Shown: in pieces, positions 4,701 to 63,884 of the stretch
How positions within the stretch are numbered: the first letter of the stretch is position 1
Layout of the letters: the number at the start of each line of letters is the position of its first letter
NCBI GenBank assembly: GCA_019155205.2
Contig: JAHNZQ020000004.1
Coordinates: 4,997,418 to 5,061,417 of the forward strand
Length of the DNA: 64,000 nucleotides
Origin: Gracilaria vermiculophylla
Lineage: Eukaryota; Rhodophyta; Florideophyceae; Gracilariales; Gracilariaceae
Direction: 5' to 3'
Made by a program: the position numbers and the translations under genes
The notes under the pieces: generated by a model
The model's database searches: none
What the model saw: the letters and a program-made list of their open reading frames with translations, nothing else
What the model was told of the DNA's origin: nothing

Positions 4701-5810
4701 ATGGCTCCAGCAGACATCCCTTATCACTCCGCTTCACCGACTTCCGGATCTGCTTCAACTAATCCCGTTGAAGAACGTCCATCTATCGATTCTTCTCCGC
4801 AGCCCTCCACCACCTCGGCCCCATTACTGAGCGCTTATGAATCGCCTCCATGCACTTCCGGTGCCGTTCTCTCGCCGAAGGCGCCTCCTGGACGCGCAAC
4901 TTTTACAGCGGCTTCGCAATTCCGTTCTAAGGCATATGGACTTGAAAGTGGTGGTCATACTCCTATCATTGCTCATCGTCCGATACTGCGACATCGTCAG
5001 CGAGGCGGCCGCCGTTCTGGTTCAAGTCGAGGTACCGGCTTCACGCAGAAAGAAGTCGAAAGTGTACTAAGTGTAATTGAGAAGTATTTACCTCTTTGTA
5101 AAGAAGAGTGGGATATGGTTGCAAAGAAGCACGGCGAGACATTCTTCGTAGAAAACCGCACTGTAGATAGTATCAAGCGCAAGTTTGCTACACTCCACCG
5201 TCGTAAAGTTCCAACCGGCGATCCACGGATGCCGGATGACGTGCGACGAGCTAGACGCTTACGCTTTCGTATGTGCGAGAGAGCTGACATAGGCGAAGGT
5301 GCAGGTGCAGAGGAGACCATTGGAAGAATTCTACCGAGCAGCGATGAAGAAGCTGATAACACAATGGACACCGATGAAAACGAGATCGCTGCTTCGAACT
5401 TGCCAAATGTGGAGCGCGTTCCCGCCACCCCGAGCAACACTCTCGCTGATGCTGTTGACAGTCCACGCCCAACTACGGTAGCGCCTCCTATCGTGTTCAA
5501 GAGGTCCCAAGCTCGTTTTTCACGCACATCTAAGGAAACCGAAGGAGAGAATTTTTACCAGCTTTTTCAAATGTCGCTACTGCAAGAGCAGCAGCGTAGT
5601 GAAGAGGATATGAGGTGTCGTCGAGAGGATCGAGAAGAGAACAGAAGAAGAGCTCAGGAAGAAGCTACAGGACACCAGCAGCTTATGGAAATGATGACCA
5701 TGCTTGTAGCTCAAAACGCTCGTGCTAAAGAACTTTATATATGTAGCGATTCGTGCAAAAAAAAGTTAGCTTCTGCACTAAGATGCGGCATATACAATGA
5801 TAAAATTTGA
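4701..5810 (+). CDS. DUF6818-type Myb/SANT-like protein of a Harbinger-like element
   Basis: Intact 369-codon ORF from an ATG with G at +4. Residues 1-110 are low-complexity (Ser/Pro/Thr, then Arg-rich). Residues about 112-197 form the recognisable domain: GFTQKEVESVLSVIEKYLP, a tryptophan in EEWDMV, then IKRKFATLHRRKVPTGDPR and a basic stretch. This is the pattern I associate with DUF6818/Myb-SANT-like proteins of red algae and oomycetes. Residues 205-235 are acidic and residues about 282-345 are a charged coiled-coil candidate. It converges on the transposase pseudogene at 5927-6883. Harbinger transposons typically encode a transposase plus a Myb/SANT-like DNA-binding partner, so it is probably the partner protein; a domesticated host gene is the alternative. 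Unlike the transposase it carries no stop or frameshift. Confidence 0.75.
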   Translation: MAPADIPYHSASPTSGSASTNPVEERPSIDSSPQPSTTSAPLLSAYESPPCTSGAVLSPKAPPGRATFTAASQFRSKAYGLESGGHTPIIAHRPILRHRQRGGRRSGSSRGTGFTQKEVESVLSVIEKYLPLCKEEWDMVAKKHGETFFVENRTVDSIKRKFATLHRRKVPTGDPRMPDDVRRARRLRFRMCERADIGEGAGAEETIGRILPSSDEEADNTMDTDENEIAASNLPNVERVPATPSNTLADAVDSPRPTTVAPPIVFKRSQARFSRTSKETEGENFYQLFQMSLLQEQQRSEEDMRCRREDREENRRRAQEEATGHQQLMEMMTMLVAQNARAKELYICSDSCKKKLASALRCGIYNDKI

Positions 5811-5926
5811 TCGATACCAACCATCCGAGCTCTCAGGTTGAAGAGTAGGACGGTGCAGTGAAGAATAAGCTTTCGTTCTCCGTGTTCTTCATAAACGAGT
5901 CGATCCTTCATTCTTGGGAATGAACC

Positions 5927-6883
5927 TTAAAAAGCCCGCATACCCCACTCCGACGCTTGTCTTGCAGAAGTTGCTTGTTTCAACAGGACGACTTCGGCCG
6001 CACCATCTGCCCTAGTTTCATCTTGAGCGGATTTGATTAGAAACGGATAGTCCCCTTTTGAAAACGCAGAATCTACCACACATTGGCCCCCGTAAGTTCT
6101 ATAGCAATTTTCAAGTTTTTTGTATACTCCGCCCCATTCTGCTATTTGTGAGTCATGCATGCATCCAGGTGCATTTATGGCGCATGATACGATAGTCCCT
6201 GACGGTGCAAAATCAAAGACGTTACCAACGTAGTGGTCATGAGTCCAGCCGTTGTAAAACATGTTTTGAATTACGAAGTCCCCAGACTACTCTAAGTACA
6301 GCTTTAGGCCATCCGCTACAGCGTACACATTTTGTAGAGACATGTACCTAGAGGAAACGGCAGTCTTATACTGTTCCATCTCGTGCTGATCCGGCATCCG
6401 TACTTGTGCCCGGCTGTCCCTTGAAAGTACACGAAGTAAGAGCCTTCTCCCGAAGCGAATGAAAATTGAACACACAGACGATGTTATGCCAAAGAGCATG
6501 CATAACGTAAACATCGGTCCACGTATTCTGTGCCATGCAAGAACCAACCCCAAACACTAAGTCGCGGACATACTTCTGGGCCTTCCCCTCGTGCGATTCG
6601 TAAAGGCGATGATTCTGATGACTCCATCTTCCGAGTAGGGAGTAAATCTGCGATATAGTGGAGCAAACTGCTGTAGTATAGCAACAAACGTGCAATGGTC
6701 AAATCCGGTTACTGTAATCAAAGATTGATCGCACATGGACTTAAGCAGCACCATAAACGGGGAAATGGCAGGACTTTGTAAAGCCCGGCGAGTTACTCTG
6801 TGGTCTCGACGTCTTCTTCCTGCAATCGTTAATCGATTTCGTAAGCCGACCCGTGGCACCTGCCACTGCCGGTGTGCCAGCAT
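5927..6883 (-). pseudogene. PIF/Harbinger-like DDE transposase (two in-frame TAG stops)
   Basis: One minus-strand frame runs from about 6883 (or ATG 6913) to a TAA at 5927. It is interrupted only by TAG codons at 6557-6559 and 6287-6289, with no frameshift. Conserved blocks in order: an N-terminal part with LLKSMCDQSLITVTGFDHCT; then RGRPRSMSAT, stop, CLGLVLAW; FGRRLLLRVL; VYAVADGLKLYLE (first catalytic Asp region); and after the second stop, YNGWTHDHYVG, CAINAPGCMHDSQIAEW (second Asp region) and CVVDSAFSK. This is the DDE_Tnp_4-type order. The start is uncertain because the frame stays open to 7150 through a tandem repeat. It forms a convergent pair with 4701-5810. Probably inactive unless the TAG codons are read through. 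Confidence 0.8.
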
Positions 6884-6918
6884 CGCGAGCAATAGTGCAG
6901 ATATAGAAGGCATAGGGA

Positions 6919-6974
6919 CGCTCGTACTCGGTGTCGTACTCGCACACGCTCGTACTCGGTGTCGTACTTGCACA
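6919..6974. repeat. 28-bp tandem duplication
   Basis: Two adjacent copies of a 28-bp unit containing CTCGTACTCGGTGTCGTACT. It lies just upstream of the presumed transposase start and keeps that minus frame open. Confidence 0.85.
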
Positions 6975-7182
6975 CAGTTATGTGCGAGAGTTGCCAAATT
7001 GGTACGGACTTTTCGTGCCCATTTCAGTCGTATCAAATCTGTCAATACGTATTTTGATATTTGAGTGCTGGTACAAATTTGTGTTTTTCGGAGCGACCCA
7101 CTGTTCTCACAGTTCTGGAAACCAGGGCCGCAGCTTCCCTCCCCGTGCAAAACGAGAGGTCGGGTTCACATTCGGCATAATC

Positions 7183-8502
7183 ATGCGCCAACATCACTTG
7201 CACGTCTGTCTCAAACTTCTTCGAAGGTCCTGTTCAGCAAAACCCCCCGCACGAAGAGAGGGACAGAAATGGCTACAACGTATTGCTGTTCATGTGCTTT
7301 ACACTACTCTTGCGGTGTCTTCTCTAACACAAACAGTCTCAGTTCCGCAAACATTACATTCTTGTCCTTCTTTTGACAGCCATCAGCACATCACCCTCTT
7401 ATCTGAAGATCTATTCAAGCGCATGTACCACGTAAGCAAAAAACAGTTTGAGCTGTTACTGTCCATACTGCGTATCATACTTCGAAAAAAGCAGAGGACG
7501 CATTCGGTTGTATCACAAGCGGTGTCACCTGCGGTGATGATGTTCATTGCGCTTCGACTCCTCGCTGGCGCCAGTTACTTGGATCTACACTACCCATATG
7601 GATTAACAGTCAGTACCATCTATCGCGTTTTCGAGCAAACACTCACTGTGCTAAACAACGTTTTACCTCTCATATATTTTCCAGCTACGGCTGCATGCTG
7701 CTGTTCCAGCGCAGGACGTTACAAACGCATGCGCAAAACACCATTTTATGGTGTCATCGCTGCTATAGACAGACTCGCTGTTGAGATGCGACAGCCTTCT
7801 TTGTCAGATGTTTCCGACCCAATAAAGTATTATGACCGAAAAGGATTTTGCGCCGTTGTCGTACAAGCCGTTGTCGAAGCAAACTACGAGTTTTGCTTTC
7901 TATCTGCTCGTCACGCAGGTGAAACTCACGACTCAACCGCATTTCAGGCTTCAAAGCTTTTCACTCTGCTGAAATGTGACCTTCTGCCTCGATGGGCAAC
8001 AGTGTTTGCAGATGACGCCTACGCAAACGAAGGAAGAGTAATGATGCCATAATCTTGAAAAGGACTCACGCCGGCGCAAGATTCTTTCAATTATTATCAT
8101 TCCTCAATAAGGATAATAGCGGAACAAGCCTTTGGTATGTTATTTTGCAGGTTTGGTATTTTCTGGTCCGCGCTGCGTCTTCCTGTGGCGAAGTGTACAC
8201 TGATAATTCTGGTTACCGCAAAGCTGCACAACTTTATTATCGATAATGCAGATTCGGATATCTTCGTAATGATATCTCCTCATGATCGTAATCGTGTCCA
8301 AGGTTCCCCTGTTGTGCATCTTCAGAATAATCTTCACATGGAAATAGACACACCTAGACCGAAACAGTGGCAGAGAAAAAACACAAAAATGAGAGATGAC
8401 TTAGCGCAAAGCCCACAACGATACGGCTACATTCTTCGGCGCCATTACCGTCATATTGACGTAGCGAATCCAACACTACCATATCTGGAGCTGGTGGCAT
8501 AG
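7183..8502 (+). pseudogene. Second PIF/Harbinger-like DDE transposase (broken by TAA and TGA)
   Basis: A single plus frame from ATG 7183 to a stop at 8500. It is broken only by TAA at 8050-8052 and TGA at 8056-8058. Blocks in order: an N-terminal helical region; LTVSTIYRVFEQTL (helix-turn-helix-like); FYGVIAAIDRLAV (first Asp); YYDRKGFCAVVVQAVV; SARHAGETHDSTAF (second Asp region); FADDAYAN; then, past the stops, DSFNYYHSSIRI, EQAFGMLFCRFGIFW and KLHNFIIDN. This is the DDE_Tnp_4 order and the C-terminal 'QAFG...R' block carries the usual Glu. The sequence differs from the transposase at 5927, so it is a second element. No Myb-like partner or inverted repeats were found. The start is the first ATG that keeps the family-like part; the frame is open further upstream. 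Confidence 0.8.
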
Positions 8503-8941: not shown

Positions 8942-9426
8942 CCAGTGTGTGTTCCTAAAGTTGGTCTCCGGTATTCGCTGTCACGAGCCGGGGGAATTTT
9001 TGAAAGGGATCTGCAAACACCAAGCGGAGGGGGGTGGTTTACTGGGCGGAAAACGCTCCTACAGGCGCTGCTATGATGTGACCTGGGGATCGGCGGCTTA
9101 GAAACCTGAGGATGATCGACGAGAGTCTCCAACCGGAAAGGTATATGAAGACTCAAGGGTGCTTGTCTTTACTTCACCAGAAGTGGAGATCAACCGGGAA
9201 ATTAAGTATGAAGCCGGGAGCCCGCCTCGGCAGGTCTCACTACTGTAGTAATTACCTACGTAAATTAACTAAAATAAATATAAATTCTGCCGTCTCTTGA
9301 GGATAATGTCGAGCACGCGGGCGGAGTTATGCACCACGTGGCTCAGTTAATAAAATACGAACCTTCCTTAGGAATATCACGCCATGAATCCACATCACAA
9401 TATTTCCTAGGAGCCATTATACTATA
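8942..9426 (-). repeat. 3' LTR of gypsy B, truncated
   Basis: Matches the other LTRs of the 553-bp family from the GTGTTCCT...GGTCTCCGGTATTCGCTGTC segment to the TGTAGTAC-type terminus, here decayed to TATAGTAT. About 75 bp of its 3' (U5-side) end is replaced by unrelated DNA. Confidence 0.85.
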
Positions 9427-9439
9427 CACCCCCTTTCGT
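9427..9439 (-). promoter_or_regulatory. Polypurine tract of gypsy B next to the 3' LTR
   Basis: Minus strand reads ACGAAAGGGGGTG directly before the LTR. The equivalent tract in element A is AGGAAAGGGGG (53935-53945). Plus-strand priming site by position. Confidence 0.7.
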
Positions 9440-9930
9440 AAATTGCACCACGTCCTCGAGGTGCATCTTCCCATTCCTTGATTTTTGGAAGGACTCCTAT
9501 CGGTGTGATGTAAGCGCCCTCCGGCGATGGACACATTCTGTCCTTCAGGCATTCCTTTATACTTCGATAATTCTGCGCAGCGTACCACCGCGGGCTCGTG
9601 TATTATCCCTTGCAGTGTTTGCGGGCCCTGGTCCTCTTTAACCCAGCTGAGTCTCCTCCTTCTTGGCGTAAATCGTTGGTGTTGCCGCGTCAGTCGGCGG
9701 CGTGAGCTTCCGCGCACTCCAGCGTGTTATCTGCAGTGCAGGCGTGAAACCTCCGTAGCCCGAGCGCGGGTCAGTCCAGAGTGGACACAGACTCTCTCAA
9801 GGCACTTGACGCTCCGATTCCTTCGAGGATTCTTCTTCGGGGAACACCCGCTTCATCGCCTCCGTTCATTACGTCTCCGTGAAGGTGCGTCATCTCGTAA
9901 TCTTCGCGTCCGCGCTCTCTTCGGGCTCCA

Positions 9931-11982
9931 ATGGATATGAACGTACGCCCCGCTATGATGCTCCATACCTCGCCTGCTTACTGTCGCCCGGTTTCCTTGC
10001 GAGTTCCACCATGGCGGCTTGGCGCGGCTCCCTCCCCGGTTGGGCGTATAACTGCGGGCCGCTCCCCAAGTGGCGTCAGATCACTCTCCTCAGGTGCCAC
10101 AACGCGTTCAATCGCCATCCATTCAGCTTCCTACACCTTCTGCATGTTTTCTCCAACTCCGGCGCCTGCGTCGACATCCAATCCTGAGTTGTACCACACC
10201 TCGACCGGTGCACCGCTCCGTCCAGGAGAGCAGTTCGATCATCGTGCCACACGGGTCTCCGTCTCGTTCTATGATAGGCTTGTAAGTCTCCCGTGCCCCG
10301 TGGAGGATTACATCCATCACTTTGGACCGTACCTCCAGGCGATGCGATTCCGCGCTGTATCGGAGGTTACATGGAACGACCAGAAGTGGAATCGGGTGGA
10401 CGCTTCTCACGCTCACTGGCTCCACACTCCTATACACGGTGAAAACGCTCCAACTACGGTGGAACATTGCGATACTCCATATCTGAGGTGCGCCGAGGAA
10501 CGCGGGGTTCAGGCGCGACTCCAGGTACTCCATAAAAAGGAGAGTTGACACCAAAGGGCGGGGCAACCCGGCAGCATTGCCGATGGACGCTCGGCCCTCG
10601 CGGTGTTACGCTTTGATCCCCCATACGATGGCCTCGACTGGCTGAACCGAAATCTATGGGGGACGCACCTTGAGAATAAAACCCGAGTACATACCGCCTT
10701 CGGGTACTTCTATGGTGGGCATAACACGGAATTCCACGACATGCCTTCTGGGCAGCGTCCGAACTACTACCTCATGGTGATTAACTCTTGAAGGGATCAC
10801 TGGGTATCCCTGCACCTCTGCGTGGCGACACCCATCACTTTCGCATATCACACCTCCGACAATCTAGATCCATACGACTCCATAGGGCGTTTCCACATGT
10901 TGATCGCCTCGACGAAGTTCTCGGTCGGCACCCTGATGACGTATCTCCAAGCAGCAAACGAGAGCGTTACCTCCTATACTTGGTGACGTGATGGTCGCCT
11001 CTACCAGGACTCTTCGCATCAGCCGACCGCCGGACATTTGCTCTTCTTGTTGGCGTCCATTATCCGAGTCCTGCGCTCCTTTGGCATCCACAATCTTATT
11101 AAGGGCACCGCATGGAATGAGTCCGTGGCGGATACGTTGCTAAATTACAACCTGCAAGTGGCGTGGAATGACACACCGGGCTTTCTTTGGTACGATTACG
11201 GCGAAGATAAGGTCCACCCAGTCGTTAGGAGTCCCAACGGAGTCGATGACGGGCGAACCTATCCGACTTTTCTTTGTCTGGAGCCTTTTCGGGTTCCTCA
11301 GGTGCCACGGCCCCGAGTACCCGACTGTAACCTCTTGATGGAGAGCCTGGCGCATCATTCGCCCCGTCGGCTACCGGCTCCGTCCCAGGATATGGGCGCA
11401 CCTCCTGAGGTGATAACTCCGCAGCCCGCCACAAGGCCGGGTGTTCCCGCTGTGGGAGCCGCCGTGTATCCTGTGGAAGAGGACGAAATGGCTTCCGTCC
11501 CGGTACCTTCGGCCCCGGCGATGCAACCCCGACTGTGAAGTGTTCCTGAGCCTGTTCTCCAGCCTCGCCTGCGGATCGTTCCAGTTCCCGCACCGCCGTC
11601 ACCTCGGGTGTCACCGACTCCGTCCTTGGCTCTGTATACCTCCTTGGCGGAACCTGCAGGGTCCCGTCGAGAAGCCCCTATTCCACCTGGTCCGCCGTCC
11701 GCAGCTGCTTCCGTGGCGGGTGTTGCGCCGTCAACGGAGGTGGCCACTTCGGTTGCACCGTCGGGCGGATTGTCCTCTGGAGCTCTGGGTGCTGTCTTCC
11801 AGGAGTTGGTGCAGGTGTGCCTAGTGATGGGCCGTCCTGCTCCGGCTTCTACTATAGAGGCTCTGCGCGAGGTGCGTGCCTAGGTCTTAGAACTCCACAC
11901 GGCCCGGGCGGACCGAGCCTCGATTGGGGCCACTAATGAAAGCCTGGCGGAGTTTTTCCAGAGCCAAGCTCTCACGGCATAA
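9931..11982 (+). pseudogene. Antisense gene of gypsy B, possibly Ulp1/C48 protease-like
   Basis: This gene lies on the strand opposite to gag-pol. One frame runs from ATG 9931 to TAA 11980-11982 (683 codons), broken only by TGA at 10546, 10789, 10984 and 11536 and TAG at 11881. The ATG and the first roughly 150 codons recur in element A (53455 downward), also starting MDM, with many conservative replacements. Codons about 1-90 are Ser/Pro-rich and about 94-150 a conserved block (RPGEQFDHRATR, VEDYIHHFGPYLQAMRFRAV). DWLN sits at codons 236-239, VINS then HW at about 285-291 and Q at 359. His to Gln is 69 codons, close to Ulp1/C48 proteases. No catalytic Cys is evident at the expected place (TAG at 366-368 instead of CG). 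The C-terminal third is Pro/Ala-rich. Function is inferred from weak motifs; that it is or was a gene is better supported. Confidence 0.6.
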
Positions 11983-12270
11983 CCTCGCCTCGAAGCAAGG
12001 TATACGACGCGATTTAGTGACCTACAGGGGATAGAACCCTAGCGATAGGAGTGAATTTTCGGTAGCGGTGAAATAAAAGATCCTTCAGTTGGAGCAGAAG
12101 CTCCATGATCAGCAGTTTCAGTATGACTAGGCCGTACCCGCGTGCTCAACCACACGAAGTGCCGCCGCGACAGCATGCGAAAAGCAAGCAACGGCATCCT
12201 GGAGACGAAAAATAGAACTCCAGGTAGGGGATAGACTGTGGAGACGAAGAACAACTCCGGTTGGGGGCCG
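11983..12270. other. Spacer between antisense gene and pol end in gypsy B
   Basis: No frame of interest on either strand. The 3' ends of the antisense gene and of pol/chromodomain converge here, so any terminators for both transcripts would be expected in this interval. Confidence 0.4.
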
Positions 12271-12284
12271 CCTCCCCCTTTCCT
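12271..12284 (-). promoter_or_regulatory. Internal second polypurine tract after the chromodomain of B
   Basis: Minus strand TTAGGAAAGGGGGAGG, nearly identical to the tract at the 3' LTR of A (TTAGGAAAGGGGG). The same tract follows the chromodomain in element E (63779-63797). It brackets the antisense cassette together with 9427-9439. Confidence 0.6.
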
Positions 12285-12500
12285 AAACGGAAACGTCTAT
12301 GTGGAGAGGCGTTTCCGCACCAGCTTGGCGTTTTATTGCCCAAGGAAGTTTTTCGGGGTGTGTTCCAGCGGTTCTTCCGTGTCACCGTTTCAGGTGTACC
12401 CATACCAGCAGACGCAGGACAGTATTCTTGGAGGGGTTTGTCGGTGGGAGACAATATGGTCCACCGCGTAGAGGATGTCACTTTCAGGGCTCATGATAGC
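12285..12500 (-). pseudogene. Chromodomain remnant at the pol C-terminus of gypsy B
   Basis: The minus strand aligns with the chromodomain of element E (63583-63760): VDHIVSHRQTPPRIL, a CWYGYT segment, then DTEEP. An in-frame stop follows the GYT part and the last helix is altered. Chromodomains at the pol C-terminus mark chromoviruses and can direct integration to particular chromatin. Confidence 0.65.
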
Positions 12501-12639
12501 GTCTGGGGCTTCCAGCAATGGTTCACCGAAGCGGTGATGCGGATTCTAATACCCAACGGTGTCGTCACTCCTGAGGTGGTCGGATGAGGAAGTTTTGCGC
12601 ATGGTCCCTGAGGTGGGACGGCGGGCATTCCTGAGGGGC

Positions 12640-13650
12640 TAGGCGTCGAGACTTTCGTCAACCTATCACGGGATACAACGTCTCGGAGCCCATTTCCTTC
12701 AATGATGACAGTTTCCTTATAGATGACTAGGACTTTAGAAGGCCGTGAGGTGGTCTGCGCTAACTTGTGCGTGGCGTTCGGCGGTTAATCGGAGGTTTCC
12801 CCAGTTTTGTCGAGGAAAACCCCGTTACGTGTTTTCAGGTGAGAGCTTTTCATCACCTTCCGGTCGAAATCGTGTTTACATCTCCTCTGCGAGGCTTTAA
12901 GTCTCTCCTCTGCGAAGGAGAGTGCATTCACATAACATCTTAGGATGGAGCGTCTGGCTTGCGCCGCTGTTGGTTCCTAGGGCCCATCCGCCGAGTGTTC
13001 CATGGCACGTACCGCAATGACGGCACTTTGCGGAATTCGTGAGAGCACCAGGTTGAAAGCAGCGGTCCCCGTGGAGCAGCGCACCTGCAGGTTGTATGCA
13101 TACGTGAGCGGGCCGACATATGCCTCCCAATCCTTCTGGTGGTCCACGACCTGGGGCTTATGATCTTTGAGAAAGGATCAGTGATTACGAGGATAAATAG
13201 GTGCCCTCGAACCGTCTTGGGGAGAGGGCACAAAATATCCCTGATCACAAACTCCAAAGGTTCTGAAGGTGGGAACAGAGTGAGTGGTGTCCGGTGCTTC
13301 CGTATATAACCCCAAGTGGCGGCGGAAAAGTAGCAATCCTTCACCGTTTAGAAGGCGTCACTAGCCATTTTCGGCCAATTGAACTCCCTCCGCATGTTGA
13401 AATACGTCCGCGGTCTACCGGGGTGCCCGGCGAGGCGATGATAGTGCAAGAGATACAGCACCCTCGCCCTTATTTACGTCATGACCACTTTTTGGAGAGC
13501 TCCATGCAGCGGAGTGAGGCTTACAAGTGAGCCGTCCCGGTCAACACCGAATGAGGACGTTAGCATGCCCACAGTGGCGAGGGACTCCTTGCAGTACGCA
13601 TCCGTACTCTGCTCTTTCATGAACTCCGCGACGGTAATGGGGAGAACTTC
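12640..13650 (-). pseudogene. Integrase region of gypsy B, catalytic core deleted
   Basis: Minus strand. The H2C2 zinc region and the start of the core remain (PSEPLEFVIRDILCPLP, HLFILVITDPFSKI). The sequence then jumps directly to the part equivalent to VTDHQKDWDAYVGPL in element A. About 265 bp is missing, which removes the TDNGPQF Asp and the catalytic Glu. The rest, near 12.9-13.1 kb, is readable only with frameshifts (RSTGTAPFNLVLSRIP-like). No functional integrase can come from this copy. Confidence 0.75.
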
Positions 13651-13659
13651 CTTCTCCTC

Positions 13660-15979
13660 CTAAACAAGAGCCATCACGTCAGGGGATTCACCATACCTTC
13701 CTCCAGGTTCACAGCATTCCAATAATTCTCCATCGGAAGCTTCTTTCCCGTCGGCGTCTTGGATGACCAGACACAGGATGGTGTCCTCCAAGGGTGTTTT
13801 GTCTTCGCCCTCGGTTGAGATTCGCGAGAGCGCGTCCGCTGCCTGGTGTTTAATGCCAGGACGGTGGACGTTATCAAACCCGAACTCCAAGAGGCGTAGC
13901 TTCCACCTTTGCAGGCGATCGGAAGCATCTGTCAAAGACAGTATCCACCTCAATAATGCGTGGTCCGTCCTCAAGATGAAGCGCGCCTTCCAGGTATGGG
14001 CGTAAAAGCAAAACCGCCCACACGATGGCGAGACATTCGCGCTCAGAGATGGGATAATTCCGTTCCGTGGGGGTGAGGCTGCGACTCCAATATCCTATGG
14101 GTTGAAGTCCATCTCCCTGTTGCTTTTGTAGGAGGGCACATCCGACCTGGTATTTACAGGCGTCAGTGTCCAGCACCATTTGGCCGTGCCACTTCGGAAG
14201 TACCAAGATTGGTGGCTCTATTAGTCTCCTCTTCAGGTTGTTAAAGCCTTCAAACTCTTCGTCCGTCAAGATAGCCAATTACGTCGGCTTTTCTTTCTCC
14301 ACGAGGCGGTTTAACGGCGCCGCGATACGGGAGAAGTTCGGGACAAACCGCCGGAAGACATTACACAACCCCAGGAAGGAGTGGAGCTCTGTTTGGTTTG
14401 AGGGTGGGTGAGCTTCCTTGATGGAGTCTTGAGGTTTTGTGGAAACCTGTAGGTGGCCCGGGAGCACAAAATGCCCCAGATAGTCCACCGAGGACTTGAA
14501 AAAGAAATATTTTTCCAGCTTCAAAGTGAGTCCAAAATCCTTCAGGAGTTGCGGCACGTGTTTTACATGCATGAAATGCTCCTTCACGCTGTTGAAGTAT
14601 AGAATGACATCATCATTATACACCAAAGCGTACTGCCACTTCACTTTTGACAGGATTATGTGCATCGCTCGTTGGAACGTAGCGGGTGCATTCCTCGATA
14701 CAAATGGAATCCTTAGGACTCCAAAAATTCCACAGTGCAAGGTGAAAGTTCTATTATCCTCACCGGGGTCATCCATCTGAATTTGCCAGTAGTCGCTGAT
14801 AGAATCCAGCGTGAAGAAAACGGACACATTTCTTAAGGGGTCCCTTTGTTCATTTAATCAGGGTATTGGGTACGAATCGCATACCCTCACCTCGTTGAGG
14901 CGTCTATAGTCAATACAAAACCTCAAGAAGCCTTTTTTTTTTTCAAAAACACCTTCATGGAGGCCCATTCGGAATTGAAGGGCTCGGAAACGCCCTTTTT
15001 CCATCATCCGGTGGATCTCATCGCTTTCGAAATCGCGCGCATGGGGTCCGGCCCTTTTCGGGACTTGGTGTACCGGTTTCGCATTAGGTGTTAGCTGTAT
15101 CCGGTGCTTGGCCAGGCTAACCTGACCCGGGTGACGAGACCATATGTCCTCAAAGATGGATAGCATCTCCACTATTCTATGGCAATATTCTTGGAAATCT
15201 TCGTCGATTTGAAGCTTCTCCGGCGATGTGGAAGGATTACCATCCTCTGGAGCCATTGAGGTCGCTTGAGCTTCCACAGTGGCGATTGCATCGCAGTACG
15301 CAACGTCTTTGGCACGATAAAGTTGAGCCAGTCCTGCAAGGACGAGTAGTGCCAATGCGAAGATAGTTCCTTTCTGGAGCCGTAACAACGACTCTTTCAT
15401 GTTGGCAAGCACAACCCTGAAGGGAATGTTCGGTACTATTTCCATAACACCGTTCGCAATCATGGAGTGCTGCTTCGTGGTCAGGTGTGGGCTTCTTTGT
15501 AGGAATGAAGGGCCAGATGCAGAAGTCTCCCCCCAGCCCTCGACCTGACTCCTTACGGATATTTCCATACTTTTCACCAACCGGAGCTTATTCGACTGCG
15601 TCTTCTTTGGAAGATTACCCACGTGGCGAGCGTTGGCGTCCGGTCCTGGAGATGCGGACACGATACCGACAGGGACGGCGTCGTGAAAGTTCACCTTCCG
15701 CCGGCGTGGGTAGATTACACGAACATACCGACCCACAAAGGAAGTGCCCCAGATGCATTGTGCGCCCAAATCGGTTGCCACAAGGAACCACACCTTCACT
15801 TGTAGGGAGATGGACCGTAGATACAGGGATATCGCTCCGAGGATGTTCAATGCTCGACGCGACGCATCGTGCACAGTAGGGAGCTTGCCAGTCCTCAAGG
15901 AGCCGCGAGCAGACCGCGGGAGCACGTCGGCGTGCACCAGATTGGGGCCAGCTCCGGTATCAAGGATAGCGCGCACCAT
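13660..15979 (-). pseudogene. Protease-RT-RNase H region of gypsy B
   Basis: The main minus frame runs from 15979 to about 13960, with in-frame stops at 14858 (TGA) and 14279 (TAA), then a one-base shift at about 13960 into 13974-13660. Protease: VRAILDTGAGPNLVHADVL, keeping the DTG active-site triplet that A and E have lost. RT: FCIDYRRLNEV, then GYW-equivalent DYWQIQMDD, RNAPATFQRAM and YNDDVILY, so the usual YIDD/YVDD-type box reads YNDD. RNase H: LDTDACKYQVGCALL and RTDHALLRWIL. Order PR-RT-RH-IN is that of Ty3/gypsy elements. Confidence 0.85.
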
Positions 15980-16215: not shown

Positions 16216-17348
16216 TGGTTGGAGAAAAGCTGAGCTCTAGTAGGGGACGGCTTCTCTGGCTGTGCATCCAGATGCGACGTGTTCCTCTGAGGTGCAACCG
16301 GTTTGGAAACTGGCACCTGCGTTGCTAGTACAAGTGACAGTGGAATAGGCTGTACGTTCAGTGGAGCGCGGTAACCGTAGTTTCCTTGAGGGAAGGGGAT
16401 GTCGCGTTACGCAAATCGATAACTTTCGCATTTCGTTGGTGTGTCCTTCAGGTCCTGAAAGTTATTTTCCGGTTCCTGTGGGATGGCGGCCCTCATTGTG
16501 GGGGTGAGATTCGTACAATATACTGGCTCTAGAGGCAAGCAAATCCTGCAAGGTGGGGGCTTGCTTCAAGGTTTCGCCAATCGGAAGCTCCTGTAAGATC
16601 CTGCCGAGGCGTACTAAGTGGAAGACGAGGGTGTCCTCGTCCAAGACGTTTCTCCCTGAGATGAGGCATATGTGAGGGCAAGGGCCTCTTGCTCTCCCAC
16701 GAGCGTGAGGTCGTCGACCTCTTCCGAGGTGCTGCAGTCCAAAGTCAGGGTGGATGCCCGACGGGTCTTTGAAGCCGCCGGTTTGTCCGAAAGTTGGGTA
16801 TCGCTGCGACGAGTGGAATGGTAGGTATCCCCATAGGGATTGGCGAAACGCGCTAGCTCCGTATACGTGGTCTTTGGGTGCGTTGTAAGGTAATTACGCA
16901 CCCTCGCGCGTATCGAGGAAATGAGTCCCTTGACAAACAACGACTACAACCGCCGTTCGGAGTACATGTTCTAATACCGTAAGTCCTTCGTACGCAGCTT
17001 CTGTGAGAACTCCGTCTTGGTCCTTCCCGTGTTCTGCCTATAGGAGGTGACTTCAGCATCAGCATTGGCAATCATCCGGCCGTGGCGTACCTTTTCAGGA
17101 GGAAACTGACCACTTCCAGGTACGTCGTCAAGATCTCCGTTCCAGGATTACCCACAATGGTGCTCTACCACGTGAGGCACGGCTGCACCAGCGAGTGCTC
17201 TTGGCCTGTGAGGAAGAACTGAAAGCACCATACGGCGACACCTACATGGACACCATTGGTATTACACTCTGAACAGAAGCGTGTGGGAAAATTCAACATC
17301 GAGATAGCGTCTCCGCCTGAGGAGGAGTGCTTCTTCATTTGAATATGC

Positions 17349-17427
17349 TGTTGGAAAACAGATGAGCTATTTGCGCTATACTCCCTTGTGACACAGGGCG
17401 CACAGTTCACCATTTAAACTATCAACA
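17349..17427 (-). repeat. TRIM left LTR (79 bp)
   Basis: TGTTGGAAAAC...AACTATCAACA. Three mismatches to 17579-17657. Confidence 0.9.
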
Positions 17428-17563
17428 CGCCCCCTCGCCCTGTACTTACTTACAGAACGAGACCTCGGGCTTACAGTAGCCAATCTTCACTACTGCTGTA
17501 CACCTGTACAATTTCTCAGGCTCAGGTCACTTCTGGGAGTCAAACCCAGGGTCCTAACGATCA

Positions 17564-17578
17564 GCTGGGCCCATAACC
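17564..17578 (-). promoter_or_regulatory. TRIM primer-binding site, half-tRNA-iMet type
   Basis: Minus strand GGTTATGGGCCCAGC starts directly after the LTR. Its complement, GCTGGGCCCATAACC, is the anticodon arm of eukaryotic initiator tRNA-Met (CAT anticodon in loop context). Drosophila copia is the known example of priming from an internal cut of this tRNA. Confidence 0.7.
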
Positions 17579-17657
17579 TGTTGGAAAACAGATGAGCTAT
17601 TTGCGCTATACTCTCTTGTGACACAGGGCGCACAGTGCACCATTTGAACTATCAACA
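17579..17657 (-). repeat. TRIM right LTR (79 bp)
   Basis: Second copy of the 79-bp repeat, followed by the TATGC duplication. Confidence 0.9.
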
Positions 17658-18538: not shown

Positions 18539-19092
18539 TGTGGTACTGTCAGTTCTCCTTTCGAGGTAGTAAAGCACAACGCCCGTTAGGAGTTTTTGTT
18601 GACTCCAAAGGTGCGTGTTCCTGAAGGTGGTCTCCGGTATTCGCTGTCGCGAGCCGGGGGAATTCTTGAAGGGGATCTGCAAACACCAAGCGGAGTGGGA
18701 GATTTACTGGGTGGGCAATGCTCCTACACGCGCTGCTATAATGAGACCTGGGGATCGGCGGCATAGAAACCTGAGGATGATCGACGAGAGTCTCCAGTCA
18801 GAAAAGTAGATGAAGACTCAAGGGTGCTTGTCTTTACATCACTAGAGGTGGAGCTCAACAGGCAAAATAAGTATCAAGCCGGGAGCCGGCCTCGGCGGGT
18901 CTCACTATTGTAGTAATTACCTGCATAAATTAACTAAAGTAAATATAAATTCTACGGTCCCTTAAGGATACTGTAGCGTACGTGGGCGGAATTTCGCACC
19001 TCGTGGCTCAGTTACTAAAATACGAGCTCTCCTTAGGAGTATCACGCCACAAAGCTACACCACCATGTTTCCTTAGAAGCCACTGTACTACA
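18539..19092 (-). repeat. 5' LTR of gypsy B
   Basis: 554 bp. In plus orientation it starts TGTGGTACTGTC and ends CTGTACTACA, the reverse of the family termini TGTAGTAC...GTACCACA. Confidence 0.9.
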
Positions 19093-35711: not shown

Positions 35712-38624
35712 GTTGAAATGATTTTCCTGTTCTCAAAAATATTCTTATTCTTGATATTGATAGCACCCGTAAGGAAGGTTCTTTCGCCCTAAGTATTTGA
35801 TATTGGCCGCAAGTGTTATAAAACTCAATAACTTTGACAATATTTGACACTAGAAAAAAACTGCTCAGTTGCCTTTCCAGGATATCCCCACCAGTCTACC
35901 TACAATCACAGAGTGTGATGTAATCAATGTACATCCTCCCAGTGTCCTTACCTTAAAAACGAAGCTTCACGAGCTGACCGTAAGTTGTACGTTAGTGTAC
36001 AGCGCGATGAGAGAACCTAGAAACACCTACTTCGTCCAAGGCTTGACTGTGCTTTGCTCACAAGAGTTACTCGAAACCCATGCCATACAGATCTGCCCTA
36101 GTTAACAACCAACAAGTCGAGGGGTTGAATAGAATACTTGGTTTTACAACAATTACCCCTGGTCGGTAAATAGTGTTCGGTAATCTTCCACCTTTACTTC
36201 ACCCGATATCCACGGGCTAGCCACAGCACTTTGCGTGGGTGGCGCCAACAACCAACAGCCAGGTACTTTAAAGTAGCCCCACTACTGTGTCAACGATTAC
36301 CTAGCTCTCCTGCCCACAGGTTAACCTACTCTGACTCACTTTGCACAGATTTGACGATTCAACTCACTTGATTTCCACTAAAACTTCCATTTGAAACAGA
36401 ACAATTTCCACTGAAAGTAGTGTCCTTTCCACGAAAACCACAAATCAAAATCAAATCCAAATCTTGAAAAATCACGATAGTTCTAGAAAATACCGCTTTA
36501 AAAAATTACACGTTTATAGTGACGGTTTTTTTCTTTTAGGTCAAGGTGGCCGCAGCGGCTAAAACGATAGCGATATTACTATTGAAATGAATAGTAGGTC
36601 GACGGTAAGCTGAACAAAAATTTGGTTTAGTTCCTCCGATGTCTCTGCAAATCAAGAACACCGTGCATTTACATAGGCTTTAGATTCCTCCTCTTGGAAA
36701 AATCTGGAACAAAGTTGGAGGCTGTCCTGCACAGCAAGCTGAGCTAGATAGCCTCCAGACACTTTTACATACGTTGGGGAATTAGGTTTCGACATCACAC
36801 TAAATAAATAAATTATAACTTTCAAACAGTTTGTTACAGTCTTCTTGTTTTATGGATTGACTAAGATGTAAAAAAGATTTGAAAAAGAATTTACACAGGA
36901 TTGCCGTTTGTCAAAAAAAAGCCCTGAAGAGTTTTCCAATTTTTTGGGACTTCAACGTGAGCAGAACAATTTAGAATGACAATTATGACCGGAGTCGGGC
37001 CATAAACGTACATTGACTTGATAGTAGAGTGATTTGACTTTGATAAGACACGAAATAAAGTTAAACTGTAGTTCTATGATATAAAATAGCTGTATTTTGT
37101 GAGATTTTTTATTATAGCAGTTATTTCAGACAACGCTTGACGAAGAACGAAACCGAATTTGATAAAATGTATCATTCGGATTGACATGATTTTCAGATCA
37201 TGCATAAGAACAGAAGATGAACGAAAATTTTTCTCTCACCTGGTGTGGCAAGGAGATGTGATTTTCAGCTTTTTAAATGTTTCAATCATGCAAGATCATG
37301 GCTTTTCTTCACACAAGAATCACAAAATTCAAGACCGAAAGTTTTGAGAAAAGGACCCTGTCACAAGATTGATGTGAGACTGACCCTTTTTAAAATATAT
37401 GCTTTAAGTAGTGCGATAATAAAGGCCCTTCTACTTTAGCATTTTATTTTGTCAAAGTTTTTATTCTTGGTTATATTGCACCTGATTATTTTGAGAAATC
37501 ATTTTATGTAGCGAGAGAGTGAAGAGCATTTTTATATAGTTGGCAAACCTTTTTCATATTTGTAAGTCATTTTCCAGGTGCCGAGGGTCATCCTTTATGT
37601 CGATTATTTCAACGTTAGCAACTTTTTGTCATGGAAGGCGTAGTAAGGGTTCTATTGAGTAGTGTTTCTTCATTGTTGGTCTTTCGGGAGGTGTCTTTAA
37701 CTTGATGAGTCATCAGGGCGTCTTCCGAGCTGTGGAAAGCATGATGTCCAAATCATGCTTGGAGCGACATTAATGAGCCCAAAAAAAAAAATTTACCGTG
37801 AATAGGAGATGTGGGGCTGAACTTGTTTCACATTTGTGCGCGCAGAATCTGTACTTGGAATTCGTGACTTGATGCTAGACTTTGGATTGGAAACCCGAAA
37901 CATTGTCCAAAAATCATGGATACCGTTATCGCCAGCCGCAAACGTATCATATACCTTTATTGTGAGAGACGCCAAATTCGGGCACGACAACCGCACGACA
38001 AACGTACGACGAGCAAATCTCATTCAGTTTTGGATATTGATGTTAGTTGAGCTGGCGATCTGGGACACTAATGTTGTCAGTATGAAGATATACTGCGTCA
38101 CATATGAAAATGTTGAGGATCGTTAAGAGAAGGGTACATAGGTATCGAGCAATTTAGTGCAAGGGCGGCGCATATTGTGAAAGCATGTCACGTGAAATGA
38201 ATATTCTTATGAGGAAGAAGAACACCACATTGCTTCAACCGCTTTTGTGCCTCTGGGTTGTTTCACCACAGACAACTTGTTTTTGCAAGCGGCCGTGACG
38301 GACGACCATCAATATTAGATTTGAAACCCTTGGTCATTGGCTTCACGGGATTTGGTCTGCAGATGCGCATCGGTTTTCGCACCGGTAGTGGTAGATATAA
38401 ACATATGTGTGTTTTAGAGGCACACACATGTCGTAGATACTTCAATGAATAACGCGTCCCGCCTCTAATATGAAATATCGAGAGTTGCCTTTCAAACTTT
38501 GGTAGCGTTGTGTTGATTATGAAATTTGGAGGCGCTGTTGCTGCAACAGGAAGAAAATTCTTTTGGAAGTTTAACCCGTTTCGGCCATCTTCTCGGATTC
38601 TTATCAGTCTGCTTTACGGCGACA
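35712..38624. other. AT-rich intergenic region, nothing supported
   Basis: About 2.9 kb without a convincing gene. Short frames (35869-36105, 37159-37347, 37836-38126, 38258-38452, all +) lack recognisable motifs, and the one at 37836 does not begin with ATG. The last few hundred bases before 38625 would hold the promoter of the nicotianamine-synthase-like gene. I see no clear TATA box there. Confidence 0.4.
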
Positions 38625-39785
38625 ATGGGAGGTTGTGAGAGATGGAGGGGAGCTCAAGCAAGCGATGACCTCGCAACATTGCACTGTGTCAGCGGTTGCG
38701 GCAATGATGTCAAGTCTAGGGCAAAGAGGGTGGTCGAGCAAATCTTCGGCTGCGATGTGCTCCCATGCGAAGCGCAATGTCGAAGTTCAAAGGAAAGCAT
38801 CTTCTCTCGACTGGAGTCATTTGAGCATGCCGCTGACGAAGAGCTGGACCCGTGCGACGTGTTGAACAGCACTTTGACTGAACTGGTGCATTGCCTGCAA
38901 GCAAAACGAAGCGAATGCAACGGAGAGGACTACGATGAGTCGAGCGATTTCTGTGAGATTCAGAAGCAAGTTTGTCGGTACATTGACACGGATGACGAAC
39001 TTGGGCGACGAGCTGATGTTATACGGGTAGTGGCCACTCGGGCAGAAAGTCGCCTGGAATTGTTCTACGCTCGAAAGTTGTTGTATAGCGTGGGAGGCGT
39101 AAACGTTGCACAAGGCTACACGCAGAGAATCCGTCAAGCGGCGTCGGAGTTCCCCTACACGGACAATTACGTGGAGATGATACAGAAGGAGATGCAGGTC
39201 ATCAAGGAGCTCCTGCGGTCGCAGTGCTCGGGGGAGAGGATGACAAGAGTGGCGTTCTGCGGCAGCGGGCCGTTGCCGTTGAGCGGAATACTGCTAAGTG
39301 CGTTTGCAAACGTGGAGGTGACGTTGGTGGATCGGGATGAGCAGGCGGTAGCCGTCTCGCGCAAGCTGCTGCGCAAATGGGAGCGCGAGATCATCGTGCC
39401 GCCCGGTCGGGTGCGTGTAATGTGCGCGGATGTGGGCTCGCTGAAGTTCAGCCGACGTGCGGGGGAGAGCGACGTGCGCTGCGACGTTGTGTTTGTGGCC
39501 GCGTTGCTCTCGGGCGACGCGCGACGAAGCTTGCTGGCGGGTGCGCACCGGTGCAGAGACGACGCGCCGCTGGTGGTGTTGCGCTCGGCGCACGGGCTCA
39601 CGGCGCGGGTGGCGTACCACCGTGCGCGAGCTCACGGAGCACCGCGTGTGGCGTTGGTGGTGCCCGCGCGACACGTCATGCGCGATGGACACGTCGTCGA
39701 CGAGCAGCGCGGCGTGTGCGCCACACACGTGTTCCACGCGTCGATTCTCAACTCTCTGGAGGTGTTTGCGTGGCCACGCGCGTAA
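38625..39785 (+). CDS. Nicotianamine synthase-like protein
   Basis: 386 codons from ATG 38625 (A at -3, G at +4). The frame is open up to an in-frame TGA at 38520, but no earlier ATG exists. Motifs, numbered from this ATG: ASEFPYTDNYVEMIQKEM (about 173-190), RVAFCGSGPLPLSGILL (208-224, the SAM-binding GSGP loop), VTLVDRD (232-238), CDVVFVAALLSGD (286-298), APLVVLRSAHG (314-324) and near the end HASILNSLEVF. These match the order in nicotianamine synthases (PF03059), which join aminopropyl groups of S-adenosylmethionine into the metal chelator nicotianamine. The N-terminal approximately 170 residues, Cys-rich at the very start, are longer and more divergent than in plant enzymes. No introns. 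It lies 77 bp upstream of the lipid-kinase gene on the same strand. Substrate and product are inferred from family only; opine-type relatives of this fold exist. Confidence 0.75.
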   Translation: MGGCERWRGAQASDDLATLHCVSGCGNDVKSRAKRVVEQIFGCDVLPCEAQCRSSKESIFSRLESFEHAADEELDPCDVLNSTLTELVHCLQAKRSECNGEDYDESSDFCEIQKQVCRYIDTDDELGRRADVIRVVATRAESRLELFYARKLLYSVGGVNVAQGYTQRIRQAASEFPYTDNYVEMIQKEMQVIKELLRSQCSGERMTRVAFCGSGPLPLSGILLSAFANVEVTLVDRDEQAVAVSRKLLRKWEREIIVPPGRVRVMCADVGSLKFSRRAGESDVRCDVVFVAALLSGDARRSLLAGAHRCRDDAPLVVLRSAHGLTARVAYHRARAHGAPRVALVVPARHVMRDGHVVDEQRGVCATHVFHASILNSLEVFAWPRA

Positions 39786-39862
39786 TGTGGCGCGGCCACA
39801 GCGTGAAGATATGCATGCCGGCAGCCTGAGGGGCGCCCTGCGGAGCACACCCGCCATACCCG

Positions 39863-47084: not shown

Positions 47085-47089
47085 ACGGA

Positions 47090-47223
47090 TGAAAGGATCG
47101 GCCGCTTGACTCCGGAGAGTCAGGCGGGACGGAATCGCCGGCCGTGCGTTTATTTTGCACTGTCGGGTGGAACGGGTGGATACTGTTGCCCGGTCCAGTG
47201 CACGGCCAGCATCTGGTCATTCA
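47090..47223 (-). repeat. Copia LTR, left (3' LTR)
   Basis: 134 bp, 3 mismatches to 49034-49167 (about 2%), so much younger than the host gypsy A. The purine-rich GCGAGGGACGG on the minus strand just inside (47224-47234) is the likely polypurine tract. Confidence 0.95.
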
Positions 47224-47456
47224 CCGTCCCTCGCAAACATAATACCTAATGCATGTGTTGCGTGTAAACTACAATACTCAACGTAGCGTCTACCGTTAAA
47301 AACCTTTGTCGTGATAAAACCCTTTGGGACAAAACTCATGACATGAGGAAAAGGTATAGCGCTCAAAACAACTTAAAGACGAAAGGATACACACAAAACA
47401 GAGATCTGTGAAACGCATAGTAATAGACAAAAACAAATATAGTTAGTACAAAAACC

Positions 47457-49017: not shown

Positions 49018-49033
49018 GGTAGCGATGCTACCA
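49018..49033 (-). promoter_or_regulatory. Primer-binding site of the copia element
   Basis: Minus strand TGGTAGCATCGCTACC, directly after the LTR. TGGTAGCA would pair with a tRNA ending TGCTACCA. It also forms a GGTAGC/GCTACC hairpin. Confidence 0.6.
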
Positions 49034-49167
49034 TGAAAGGATCGGCTGCTTGACTCCGGAGAGTCGGGCGGGACGGAATCGCCGGCCGTGCGTTTATTTT
49101 GCACTGTCGGGTGGAACGGGTGGATACTGTTGCCCGGTCCAGTGCGCGGCCAGCATCTGGTCATTCA
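49034..49167 (-). repeat. Copia LTR, right (5' LTR)
   Basis: 134 bp, TGAAAGG...ATTCA on the plus strand, followed by ACGGA. Confidence 0.95.
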
Positions 49168-51948: not shown

Positions 51949-53060
51949 CCGAACAAGGCCAATGACCCCTTCCAAACGGTGGCGGATTGCTATTCCTGTG
52001 CCGCCGCTAGGAGGAGTATACGGAAACACAGGGCGCCGCTCACGCTGTTCCCATCTCAGGACTCTTGGAGTTCATGGCCATAGACATCCTAGGTGCTTTC
52101 CCCAAGACAAAGCGAGGGCAACGCTTTATCTTCGTGATCACGGATCGCTTTTCAAAGATCACGCGTGCCACCCCCCACTGGAGCACTACTGCAGCAGTGA
52201 TTACCGACGCCTTTCTGCAGCAATGGGTATATCCCTACGGGGTACCGTTTTATCTCCATACGGACAATGGACCCCAGTTCGCGACGAAACTCTTCAGGGC
52301 CGTCTCCGGAATACTGGGGATGAAGCAGTTGTTTACAACTTCCTATCATCCCCAGACAAACGGACAGGCGGAAAGGTTCAATAAAACCATGGCCTCGAGG
52401 CTGAAGCACTATGTCACGGACCACCAGAAGGATTGGGACGCATATGTGGGACCCCTCACGTATGCATACAATCTGCAGATGCACCGCTCCACGGGGACCG
52501 CTCCTTTTAACCTGGTGCTCTCGCGCATCCCGCCAAGTGCCGTCATCGCGGCACGCGCCACGGCGCACCCGGTGGATGGGCCACAGACGCCAACAGCGAC
52601 GCAAGCCAAACGTTCCATCCTAAGGCGATATGAGAACGCACTCTCCCTCGCGAAGGAGAGACTCAACGCCTCGCTGAGGAGATACAAGCAGGAATTCGAC
52701 CGAAATGTTATGGAAGGACCTCACCTGAAGGAAGGCGACGAGATTTTTCTCGACATACCCGGCGAAAACTCCGATGAACCGCCGGACGTCACGCGCAAGT
52801 TTGTGCCGACCAGCTCAGAGCCCTTCAAAGTCCTTGCCACCTATAGGGATACTGTCGCCATTGAGGTAAACGGGCTCAGAGATGTCGTCTCCCGTGATAG
52901 GGTGACGAAAGGCCCAACGCCCAGCCTTCCAGGAATGCCCGCCACCCCATCTCAGGGGCACCGCGCGGAGATTCCTCATTCCCCCACCTCAGGCGCGTCC
53001 CGCTTCTGGTCGTTCCATGCAACCTCCGGTACGGCGCGGAATCGCATCGCCTGCAGGTAA
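51949..53060 (+). pseudogene. Integrase of gypsy A (separated by stop and one-base shift)
   Basis: The zinc region finishes after the TAG (DCYSCA). A one-base change near 52050 moves the frame, and 52065-53060 encodes the core: FMAIDILGAFP (Asp), FVITDRFSKITRATP, LHTDNGPQFATKLF (Asp), YHPQTNGQAERFNKTMASRL (Glu). Then DWDAYVGPLTYAYN, TAPFNLVLSRIPPSAV, a basic C-terminal part and VNGLRDVVSRDRVTKGPTP. The DD35E triad is present. After RAEIPHSPTSG the frame runs into the reverse of the antisense gene because of the approximately 2.2-kb deletion, so the chromodomain is lost. Confidence 0.85.
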
Positions 53061-53455
53061 GGCCCAAAGCGGTGAATGTAATCCTCCACTAGACACGGCA
53101 GACTCACGCGCCTATCATGGAACGGGACGAAAACTCGCGTGGCGCGATGATCAAAGTGCTCGCCTGGACGGAACGGTTCTCCTGTCTAGGTATGATACAT
53201 CTCCGGATTGGAAGGGGATGTCGGTGCCGGAGTAGGAGAGGACATTCCGAAGGTGTATGCATCAGGGTGGATAGCGACAGAACGCGTGGATGCGTCTGAG
53301 GAGAGAGACTTGACACCACTTGGGGATCGATTCGCTATATGCACCATTGCGGAGGGAGTCGTATCGAGCCGCCACCGTGGAATCCGAGGCGAAGCCGGGT
53401 GACCGGCATCGGGCGAGTTATGGCGCACCATCGCGGGGCGCGCGCTCATATCCAA
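52998..53455 (-). pseudogene. Antisense gene of gypsy A, N-terminal part only
   Basis: Minus strand, ATG 53453-53455: MDMSARPAMVRHNSP, then RSPSGVKSLSSDASTRSVAI, SSPTPAPTSPSNPE, a TAG at 53186, and in the same frame FRPGEHFDHRATRVFV, VEDYIHRFGPYLQAMRFRAV, ending at the deletion junction. It aligns codon for codon with 9931-10390 of element B (about 89 codons against 90 before the YHT segment), with roughly two thirds identical residues by eye and many conservative changes. Retention of a protein-like pattern in two copies argues for a real gene of the family. Confidence 0.65.
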
Positions 53456-63796: not shown

Positions 63797-63884
63797 GCTC
63801 AGTTAATAAAAATACGAATCCTCCTTAAGAATATCCCATCGTAAAGCCACCTGACAATTTCACCTTAGGAGCCACTGTAGTGCA
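63797..63884 (-). repeat. Reversed LTR fragment joined to the end of E
   Basis: 88 bp equal to the first approximately 85 bp of the family LTR in reverse (CTCAGTTAATAAAA...GCCACTGTAGTGCA). It abuts the polypurine tract of E directly. Confidence 0.8.

What the first reader, a model, noticed from the sequence alone, without database searches (positions are those of the whole stretch)
9931..11982. A gypsy retrotransposon family carries an antisense gene, possibly a Ulp1/C48-like protease
Seen: in element B a single frame of 683 codons lies opposite to gag-pol, between chromodomain and 3' LTR, broken only by five stops (four TGA, one TAG). Its start and first roughly 150 codons recur in the same place and strand of element A (52998-53455). 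The two copies differ at many sites, but changes such as K/R, I/V and E/Q predominate. Family knowledge: antisense ORFs at this position are known in some plant Tat-lineage elements, and Ulp1-like proteases are known as cargo of DNA transposons. Inference: DWLN (codons 236-239), VINS-HW (about 285-291) and Q at 359 have the order and roughly the spacing of C48 peptidases. The Cys is not evident and the Asp is uncertain. I do not know of a Ulp1-like antisense gene in a chromovirus of this sort.
Basis: partly seen in the sequence, partly recalled or inferred. Interest (0 to 1): 0.88.

Follow-up and report, generated by a model that had tools for sequence, protein, structure and literature searches.

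The report
Backwards gene in a red-algal retrotransposon

Summary
The antisense frame is real and is a gene. In 54 aligned genomic copies, variants shared by many copies are mostly synonymous in this frame (codons 72-470: omega 0.38, 0.16, 0.07 for variants in >=3, >=5, >=8 copies), while single-copy variants look neutral (1.39). The mirror sense frame, the only rival, has 17 stop codons at majority sites. The window copy is a decayed member; two of 30 loci examined keep uninterrupted frames of 708 and 723 codons. By conservation the gene runs from about 10144 (ATG in 47 of 54) to 12027 (stop in 39 of 46), between a chromodomain and the 3' LTR of a Ty3/gypsy family with 150 scored matches in a 44.8-Mb genome whose light-harvesting and phycobilisome-linker genes point to a red alga. 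No Pfam or PDB relative was found; one fragmentary relative exists in another data set. It works like the known antisense accessory ORFs of plant Retand/Grande/RIRE2 and fungal Boty, with an unrelated protein. Most likely an accessory protein of the element; its molecular role is not shown.

The parts
10144..12027 (+). antisense gene as delimited by conservation (ATG codon 72 to family stop codon 699, counting codons from 9931); broken in this copy by stops at 10546, 10789, 10984, 11536, 11881 and 11980, and reading CAG at 12025
   Evidence: shared-variant omega 0.16 in codons 72-470, 0.67 in 471-600, 0.28 in 601-683; ATG at codon 72 in 47 of 54; stop at codon 699 in 39 of 46; window stops; window letters
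9931..10143 (+). possible N-terminal extension (codons 1-71); weak constraint, ATG at codon 3 in 45 of 52
   Evidence: omega of shared variants 0.60 (codons 1-50) and 0.28 (51-71)
10144..11340 (+). conserved core of the protein, codons 72-470, rich in His; near-invariant His/Cys at 162, 165, 169, 179, 180, 187
   Evidence: omega 0.38/0.16/0.07 for variants in >=3/>=5/>=8 copies, single-copy 1.39; conserved positions
11341..11730 (+). Pro-rich linker, codons 471-600, weakly constrained
   Evidence: omega 0.67; 23-25% Pro in residues 491-615 of P0003 and P0004
11731..12027 (+). C-terminal segment, codons 601-698, constrained again
   Evidence: omega 0.28 for codons 601-683
9425..9900 (.). non-coding stretch between 3' LTR and the antisense gene; would have to hold its promoter
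   Evidence: omega about 1 at 9450-9900 in the antisense frame at every threshold, 0.73-1.35 in the six frames of the three map windows 9300-9899
8945..9424 (-). 3' LTR of element B (aligned part)
   Evidence: 86.3% identical to 18611-19090, 481 columns, 64 mismatches, 2 gap openings
18539..19092 (-). 5' LTR of element B
   Evidence: matches other LTRs of the family in the window over 554-558 columns
12300..12463 (-). chromodomain region of pol
   Evidence: counterpart in L008 scores 30.1 bits to PF00385 (cut-off 25.1); motif seen in 5 of 30 loci including this one; omega of shared variants 0.41 (>=5) in the sense frame
12570..13480 (-). integrase part of pol
   Evidence: PF00665 in L002, L013 and element A counterparts; omega of shared variants 0.30 at 12600-13049
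13660..15979 (-). RNase H, reverse transcriptase and upstream part of pol
   Evidence: PF17919, PF17917, PF00078; the piece 14858-15979 had no Pfam match
52998..53455 (-). remnant of the antisense gene in element A, which lacks B's 10390-12569 (rest of the gene and the chromodomain)

Best explanation
A chromodomain-bearing Ty3/gypsy family of (very probably) a red alga carries an accessory protein gene on the strand opposite to gag-pol, between the chromodomain and the 3' LTR. SHOWN: the frame was under purifying selection while the family multiplied and drifts neutrally once a copy has landed; the protein (about 627 residues from ATG72, up to 696 from ATG3) has a constrained His-rich core, a loose Pro-rich linker and a constrained C-terminal segment. 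INFERRED: it is transcribed from an antisense promoter in the stretch between the gene and the 3' LTR, as reported for Grande; the protein acts on the copy that encodes it or on sister copies at some step after transcription (regulation, nuclear entry or escape from silencing). The individual copy dies by point mutation after insertion, which explains the stops in the window copy.
For: Shared versus single-copy variants: in codons 72-470 omega is 0.16 for variants in >=5 of 54 copies (229 synonymous, 77 amino-acid-changing and 5 stop-making variants), 0.06 with transversions alone, 1.39 for single-copy variants; 0.07 for variants in >=8 copies; Fisher p 9e-71 for shared versus single. Controls: three of the other frames plus one sense frame 1.67-3.90; non-coding flank 9450-9900 about 1; integrase 0.30 and single-copy 1.06. 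The mirror sense frame also scores low (0.28-0.29) because it shares third positions, but has 17 majority-stop codons over 10144-11340 against 0. Stop at codon 699 in 39 of 46. Uninterrupted frames of 708 and 723 codons in L053 and L057, 2 of the 30 loci L031-L060. A relative in another data set: P0006, profile E 2.8e-35, 54% identity over 101 residues, followed by a Pro-rich stretch. Of 54 rows, 50 align at 9300 (LTR side) and 45 at 12300 (chromodomain), so most copies sit in elements. Precedents for antisense genes at this place: PMC7264820 and PMC11963269 (passages).
Against: No transcript, protein or phenotype was examined. No known domain: the best of eight weak Pfam families among 50 pieces was FAM101, E 0.0074 in 3 of 50, taken as chance. 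Codons 1-50 and 471-600 are weakly constrained. Elements A and E2 of the same window lack most or all of the gene, so it may be dispensable or supplied in trans. The 54 loci are the top of two ranked lists and are biased to long, well-matching copies. The fold prediction of one piece was uninformative (pLDDT 40.5).
Confidence: 0.7

Rival explanations
1. The antisense frame encodes a Ulp1/C48-like cysteine protease carried as cargo.
For: H290 (48 of 54), D313/D316 (50 and 51 of 54) and Q364 (44 of 54) are conserved in the right order; W237-L238-N239 is conserved.
Against: Caveat: A2 holds only three sequences.
Confidence: 0.03
2. Chance open frame or mirror image of a sense-strand gene.
For: GC-rich stretch; a sense frame shows a low omega too (0.28-0.29).
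Against: That sense frame has 17 majority-stop codons and a transversion-only omega of 0.39 against 0.06; shared stop-making variants 5 in the antisense frame against 13 in the mirror frame.
Confidence: 0.02
3. The antisense RNA, not a protein, is the functional product (silencing or dsRNA decoy), as discussed for some elements in PMC7264820.
For: Antisense transcription alone is a known mode (passages).
Against: Selection follows codons: third positions carry most shared variants, and amino-acid-changing ones are depleted. An RNA role in addition is not excluded.
Confidence: 0.06
4. A captured host gene kept by the host or hitch-hiking, rather than a working part of the element.
For: Capture is a proposed origin of antisense ORFs (PMC7264820, PMC11963269, passages); the relative P0006 lies on a short contig (2,356 bases) of unknown context.
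Against: The gene sits in elements in most copies and variants are constrained across the copies' shared history. A host progenitor was not found, but only the best-scoring candidates were scored (97 of 716; 150 of 546), so absence is not shown.
Confidence: 0.15

Closest known systems
Antisense ORFs (aORF-3R) of plant Retand, Grande and RIRE2 elements (PMC11963269, PMC7264820; passages read)
   Same: Extra ORF antisense to gag-pol between pol and 3' LTR, family-wide, conserved, function unknown; Grande's is reported to be transcribed from its own promoter and to be nuclear.
   Different: Host is apparently a red alga; pol bears a chromodomain whereas Retand is a non-chromovirus lineage; no TRP28 (PF04195) match in 50 pieces.
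Boty-like elements with antisense gene brtn in Botrytis cinerea (Zhao et al. 2011; only its title seen in a reference list, and one passage of PMC8365987)
   Same: Antisense gene in a gypsy element outside plants.
Chromodomain-bearing Ty3/gypsy elements: chromoviruses, Chronos of oomycetes, Ectocarpus lineages (PMC5348765, PMC12477816; passages)
   Same: Integrase followed by a chromodomain.
   Different: In the passages I saw none is described with an antisense gene; a term search of PMC5348765 for antisense gave 0 occurrences. RT phylogeny of this family was not done.
Ulp1/C48 peptidases (PF02902)
   Same: A few similarly ordered residues (H, D, Q).
   Different: No profile match and no conserved Cys in place.

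Membership tests
Peptidase C48/Ulp1 | match to PF02902 | tested here: not met
   0 of 50 members at E <= 10; genome-wide PF02902 search gave 5 places, none at a listed copy
Peptidase C48/Ulp1 | catalytic His-Asp-Gln-Cys in order | tested here: not met
   H290, D313/316, Q364 conserved; no Cys at 80% between codons 353 and 629
Peptidase C48/Ulp1 | profile similarity to host C48 domains | tested here: not met
   hhalign probability 0.2%, E 0.32, 17 columns
Peptidase C48/Ulp1 | papain-like fold | tested here: inconclusive
   one 141-residue window piece outside the supposed catalytic stretch folded with pLDDT 40.5; nothing searched with it
antisense accessory ORF (aORF-3R type) | antisense to gag-pol between pol and 3' LTR | tested here: met
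antisense accessory ORF (aORF-3R type) | present in many copies and conserved as coding sequence | tested here: met
   150 scored matches; omega series
antisense accessory ORF (aORF-3R type) | own antisense transcript | not testable with these tools
   no RNA data
Retand-type antisense ORF | TRP28 domain (PF04195) | tested here: not met
   not among the 8 families matched by 50 members at E <= 10
chromodomain-bearing Ty3/gypsy | RT, RNase H, integrase and chromodomain in that order | tested here: met
   PF00078, PF17919/PF17917, PF00665, PF00385 in L008's counterpart; three longer pol ORFs that end inside or before the chromodomain gave no Chromo match
chromovirus clade | RT phylogeny within chromoviruses | not tested
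   no tree built

The most novel reading that the evidence does not exclude
Chromodomain-bearing gypsy elements of red algae independently acquired an antisense-encoded protein of a family that matches nothing in Pfam or the PDB by sequence, and it became a regular working part of the element, under constraint at least as strong as that on its integrase.
Probability: 0.5. Interest if true: 0.65.

Novelty: new variant of a known kind. Interest (0 to 1): 0.52.

Why it matters
Antisense genes of LTR retrotransposons are known in flowering plants and one fungus, but their function is open. A case in a distant lineage, with a different protein and a selection signature that separates 'while active' from 'after landing', says that encoding a protein on the opposite strand next to the 3' LTR is a recurrent solution and that its product matters to transposition or persistence. 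The shared-versus-single-copy test needs only genome sequence and could be applied to the plant elements too.

Tried and rejected
Protease idea: Pfam on 8, 4 and 50 pieces, PDB sequence searches with two pieces and with the profile (none at E <= 1; one at E 0.87, a phage capsid matching the Pro-rich tail), hhalign with host C48: rejected. Relatives elsewhere: protein searches with P0001 (none), with A1 (one, P0006), with a 141-residue piece (none of 12 candidates); viral contigs (none). Structure: alignment A3 (a window piece plus P0006) gave pLDDT 40.5 and was not used for a fold search. Elicitin search for an oomycete host: no match, but its control did not ring either, so it says nothing. 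RIP-like hypermutation considered: transition/transversion ratio 1.59 with many transversions does not fit.

Not done: RT phylogeny, transmembrane prediction, a count of co-located chromodomain and antisense hits over the whole genome.

Full report
What was checked. The + strand frame 9931-11982 in element B, whose gag-pol runs on the minus strand, is as described: 683 codons with TGA at 206, 287, 352, 536 and TAG at 651, then TAA at 684. Other frames of the stretch carry 14-23 stops in this copy. Pol of B has RT, RNase H, integrase (counterparts) and a chromodomain (PF00385, 30.1 bits against a cut-off of 25.1, in the counterpart in L008; three longer pol ORFs did not score). B's LTRs align over 481 columns with 64 mismatches.

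Copies. The genome holding the window (44.8 Mb, 27 contigs) gave 41 matches to the DNA of the frame (40 of 555 candidates scored), 97 to a 432-residue open piece of a copy (97 of 716 scored; 9 of 97, the query's own place included, have no stop in the aligned part) and 150 to the piece 10987-11538 (150 of 546 scored). Sixty loci were cut out; six repeats were dropped, leaving 54 copies with the window's own. Thirty of them differ pairwise by 17% on average (identity mean 0.826). In the loci L031-L060, two of 30 have an uninterrupted frame of more than 700 codons, L053 (708) and L057 (723; its tail follows a one-base deletion). Within codons 72-683, in the window's register, 4 of 54 copies have no stop, mean 3.33; some of those loci contain runs of N, and one has a one-base deletion.

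Is it a gene? Variants found in one copy arose after insertion for the most part; variants found in many copies arose while the family was active. In codons 72-470 the single-copy variants fall on codon positions 1, 2, 3 as 344, 363, 266, those in >=5 copies as 54, 30, 227. Corrected for mutation class, omega is 1.39 for single-copy variants, 1.02 for 2-4 copies and 0.16 for >=5; with transversions alone 0.06. On a second, BLAST-anchored alignment it is 0.38, 0.16 and 0.07 for >=3, >=5 and >=8 copies; Fisher p for shared versus single 9e-71. The CpG-transition class is weaker (0.43), as recurrent mutation would give. Frame controls: four of the other five frames 1.67-3.90; the fifth, a sense frame that shares third positions, 0.28, but with 17 stop codons at majority sites against none. 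Place controls: non-coding 9450-9900 about 1.0 at all thresholds; integrase 1.06 (single), 0.30 (>=5), 0.12 (>=8), with fewer copies covering it; chromodomain frame 0.82, 0.41, 0.12 on few variants. The sliding map shows the antisense signal from about 10050 to 11250 at 0.10-0.19, weaker (0.32-0.56) to 11999, and no coding signal in any frame at 12000-12299.

Limits of the gene. ATG at codon 72 (10144) is kept in 47 of 54, at codon 3 in 45 of 52; codons 1-50 have omega 0.60 and 51-71 0.28, so the start is either codon 72 or earlier with a loose N-terminus. The usual stop is codon 699 (39 of 46); the window copy reads CAG there and its own TAA at 684 is shared by one other copy of 46. Of its internal stops, those at 206 and 352 are found in this copy alone, those at 536, 287 and 651 in 2 of 53, 10 of 53 and 5 of 48.

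What protein? A constrained His-rich core (codons 72-470), a Pro-rich weakly constrained linker (471-600; 23-25% Pro in two copies) and a constrained C-terminal segment. H162, H165, H169, H179, C180 and C187 are kept in 87-100% of copies, which could be a metal site; that is inference. Pfam found nothing above cut-off in any piece; among 50 pieces eight families appeared at E <= 10, the best FAM101 at 0.0074 in 3 of 50, which I take as chance. PDB: nothing of use. One relative outside this genome, P0006 (241 residues, on contigs of at most 2,356 bases), matches the end of the core with 54% identity over 101 residues and likewise continues into a Pro-rich stretch. A second search with a shorter piece found none, nor did viral contigs.

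The protease idea. The genome has five PF02902 matches, none at a listed copy. hhalign of A1 against three of them gives probability 0.2%. H290, D313, D316 and Q364 are conserved, but no Cys is conserved at 80% between 353 and 629. So neither profile nor catalytic set is met. A remote, inactive relative cannot be excluded without a structure.

Host. Ten matches to chlorophyll a/b-binding proteins and eleven to phycobilisome linkers together point to a red alga (that glaucophytes lack the former and cryptophytes the latter is recalled, not looked up). The rRNA search did not run.

Literature. [quoted passage not shown] Passages of PMC8365987 cite brtn in Boty. Seven paper searches ran; from their listings and the passages I opened I saw no antisense gene reported for a red-algal or chromodomain-bearing gypsy element, but listings were cut and subscription journals are missing.

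How it most likely works. Shown: selection on the protein while copies multiply, release after landing. Inferred: an antisense transcript from the stretch inside the 3' LTR, translation, and an effect on the element's own cycle. That elements A and E2 lack the gene or most of it fits internally deleted copies that use others' product, or dispensability. I call it a new variant of a known kind.

Noticed in passing
8945-9424 vs 18611-19090; 49165-52805 vs 59106-62746: Decay is almost purely by substitution: 64 mismatches and 2 gap openings between B's LTRs, 583 mismatches and 2 gap openings over 3642 columns between two other elements. The transition/transversion ratio of 1.59 among antisense copies does not look like RIP. 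Other pairs have more gaps (e.g. 321 mismatches, 19 openings).
   Followed up: partly
52993-53000 (element A): Element A lacks B's 10390-12569, i.e. most of the antisense gene and the chromodomain.
   Followed up: yes
62775-63798 and L066: Element E2 has an LTR-like stretch at 62775-63329 between integrase and chromodomain, and beyond the chromodomain an LTR fragment instead of the antisense gene; no antisense protein match in the next 2583 bases.
   Followed up: partly
47089-47226 and 49033-49170: Two 138-base direct repeats, 97% identical, flank about 1.9 kb in element A that element B lacks: perhaps a young small insertion.
   Followed up: no
4701-8052: DUF6818 ORF next to DDE_Tnp_4 pieces on both strands (5927-6262 minus, 6931-8052 plus): decayed Harbinger-like transposon material (the Harbinger label is recalled).
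   Followed up: no
38526-41002: Intron-poor genes: nicotianamine synthase-like (PF03059) followed by a diacylglycerol kinase-like ORF (PF00781).
   Followed up: no
17343-17657: Two 85-base repeats, 94% identical, 230 bases apart in element B.
   Followed up: no
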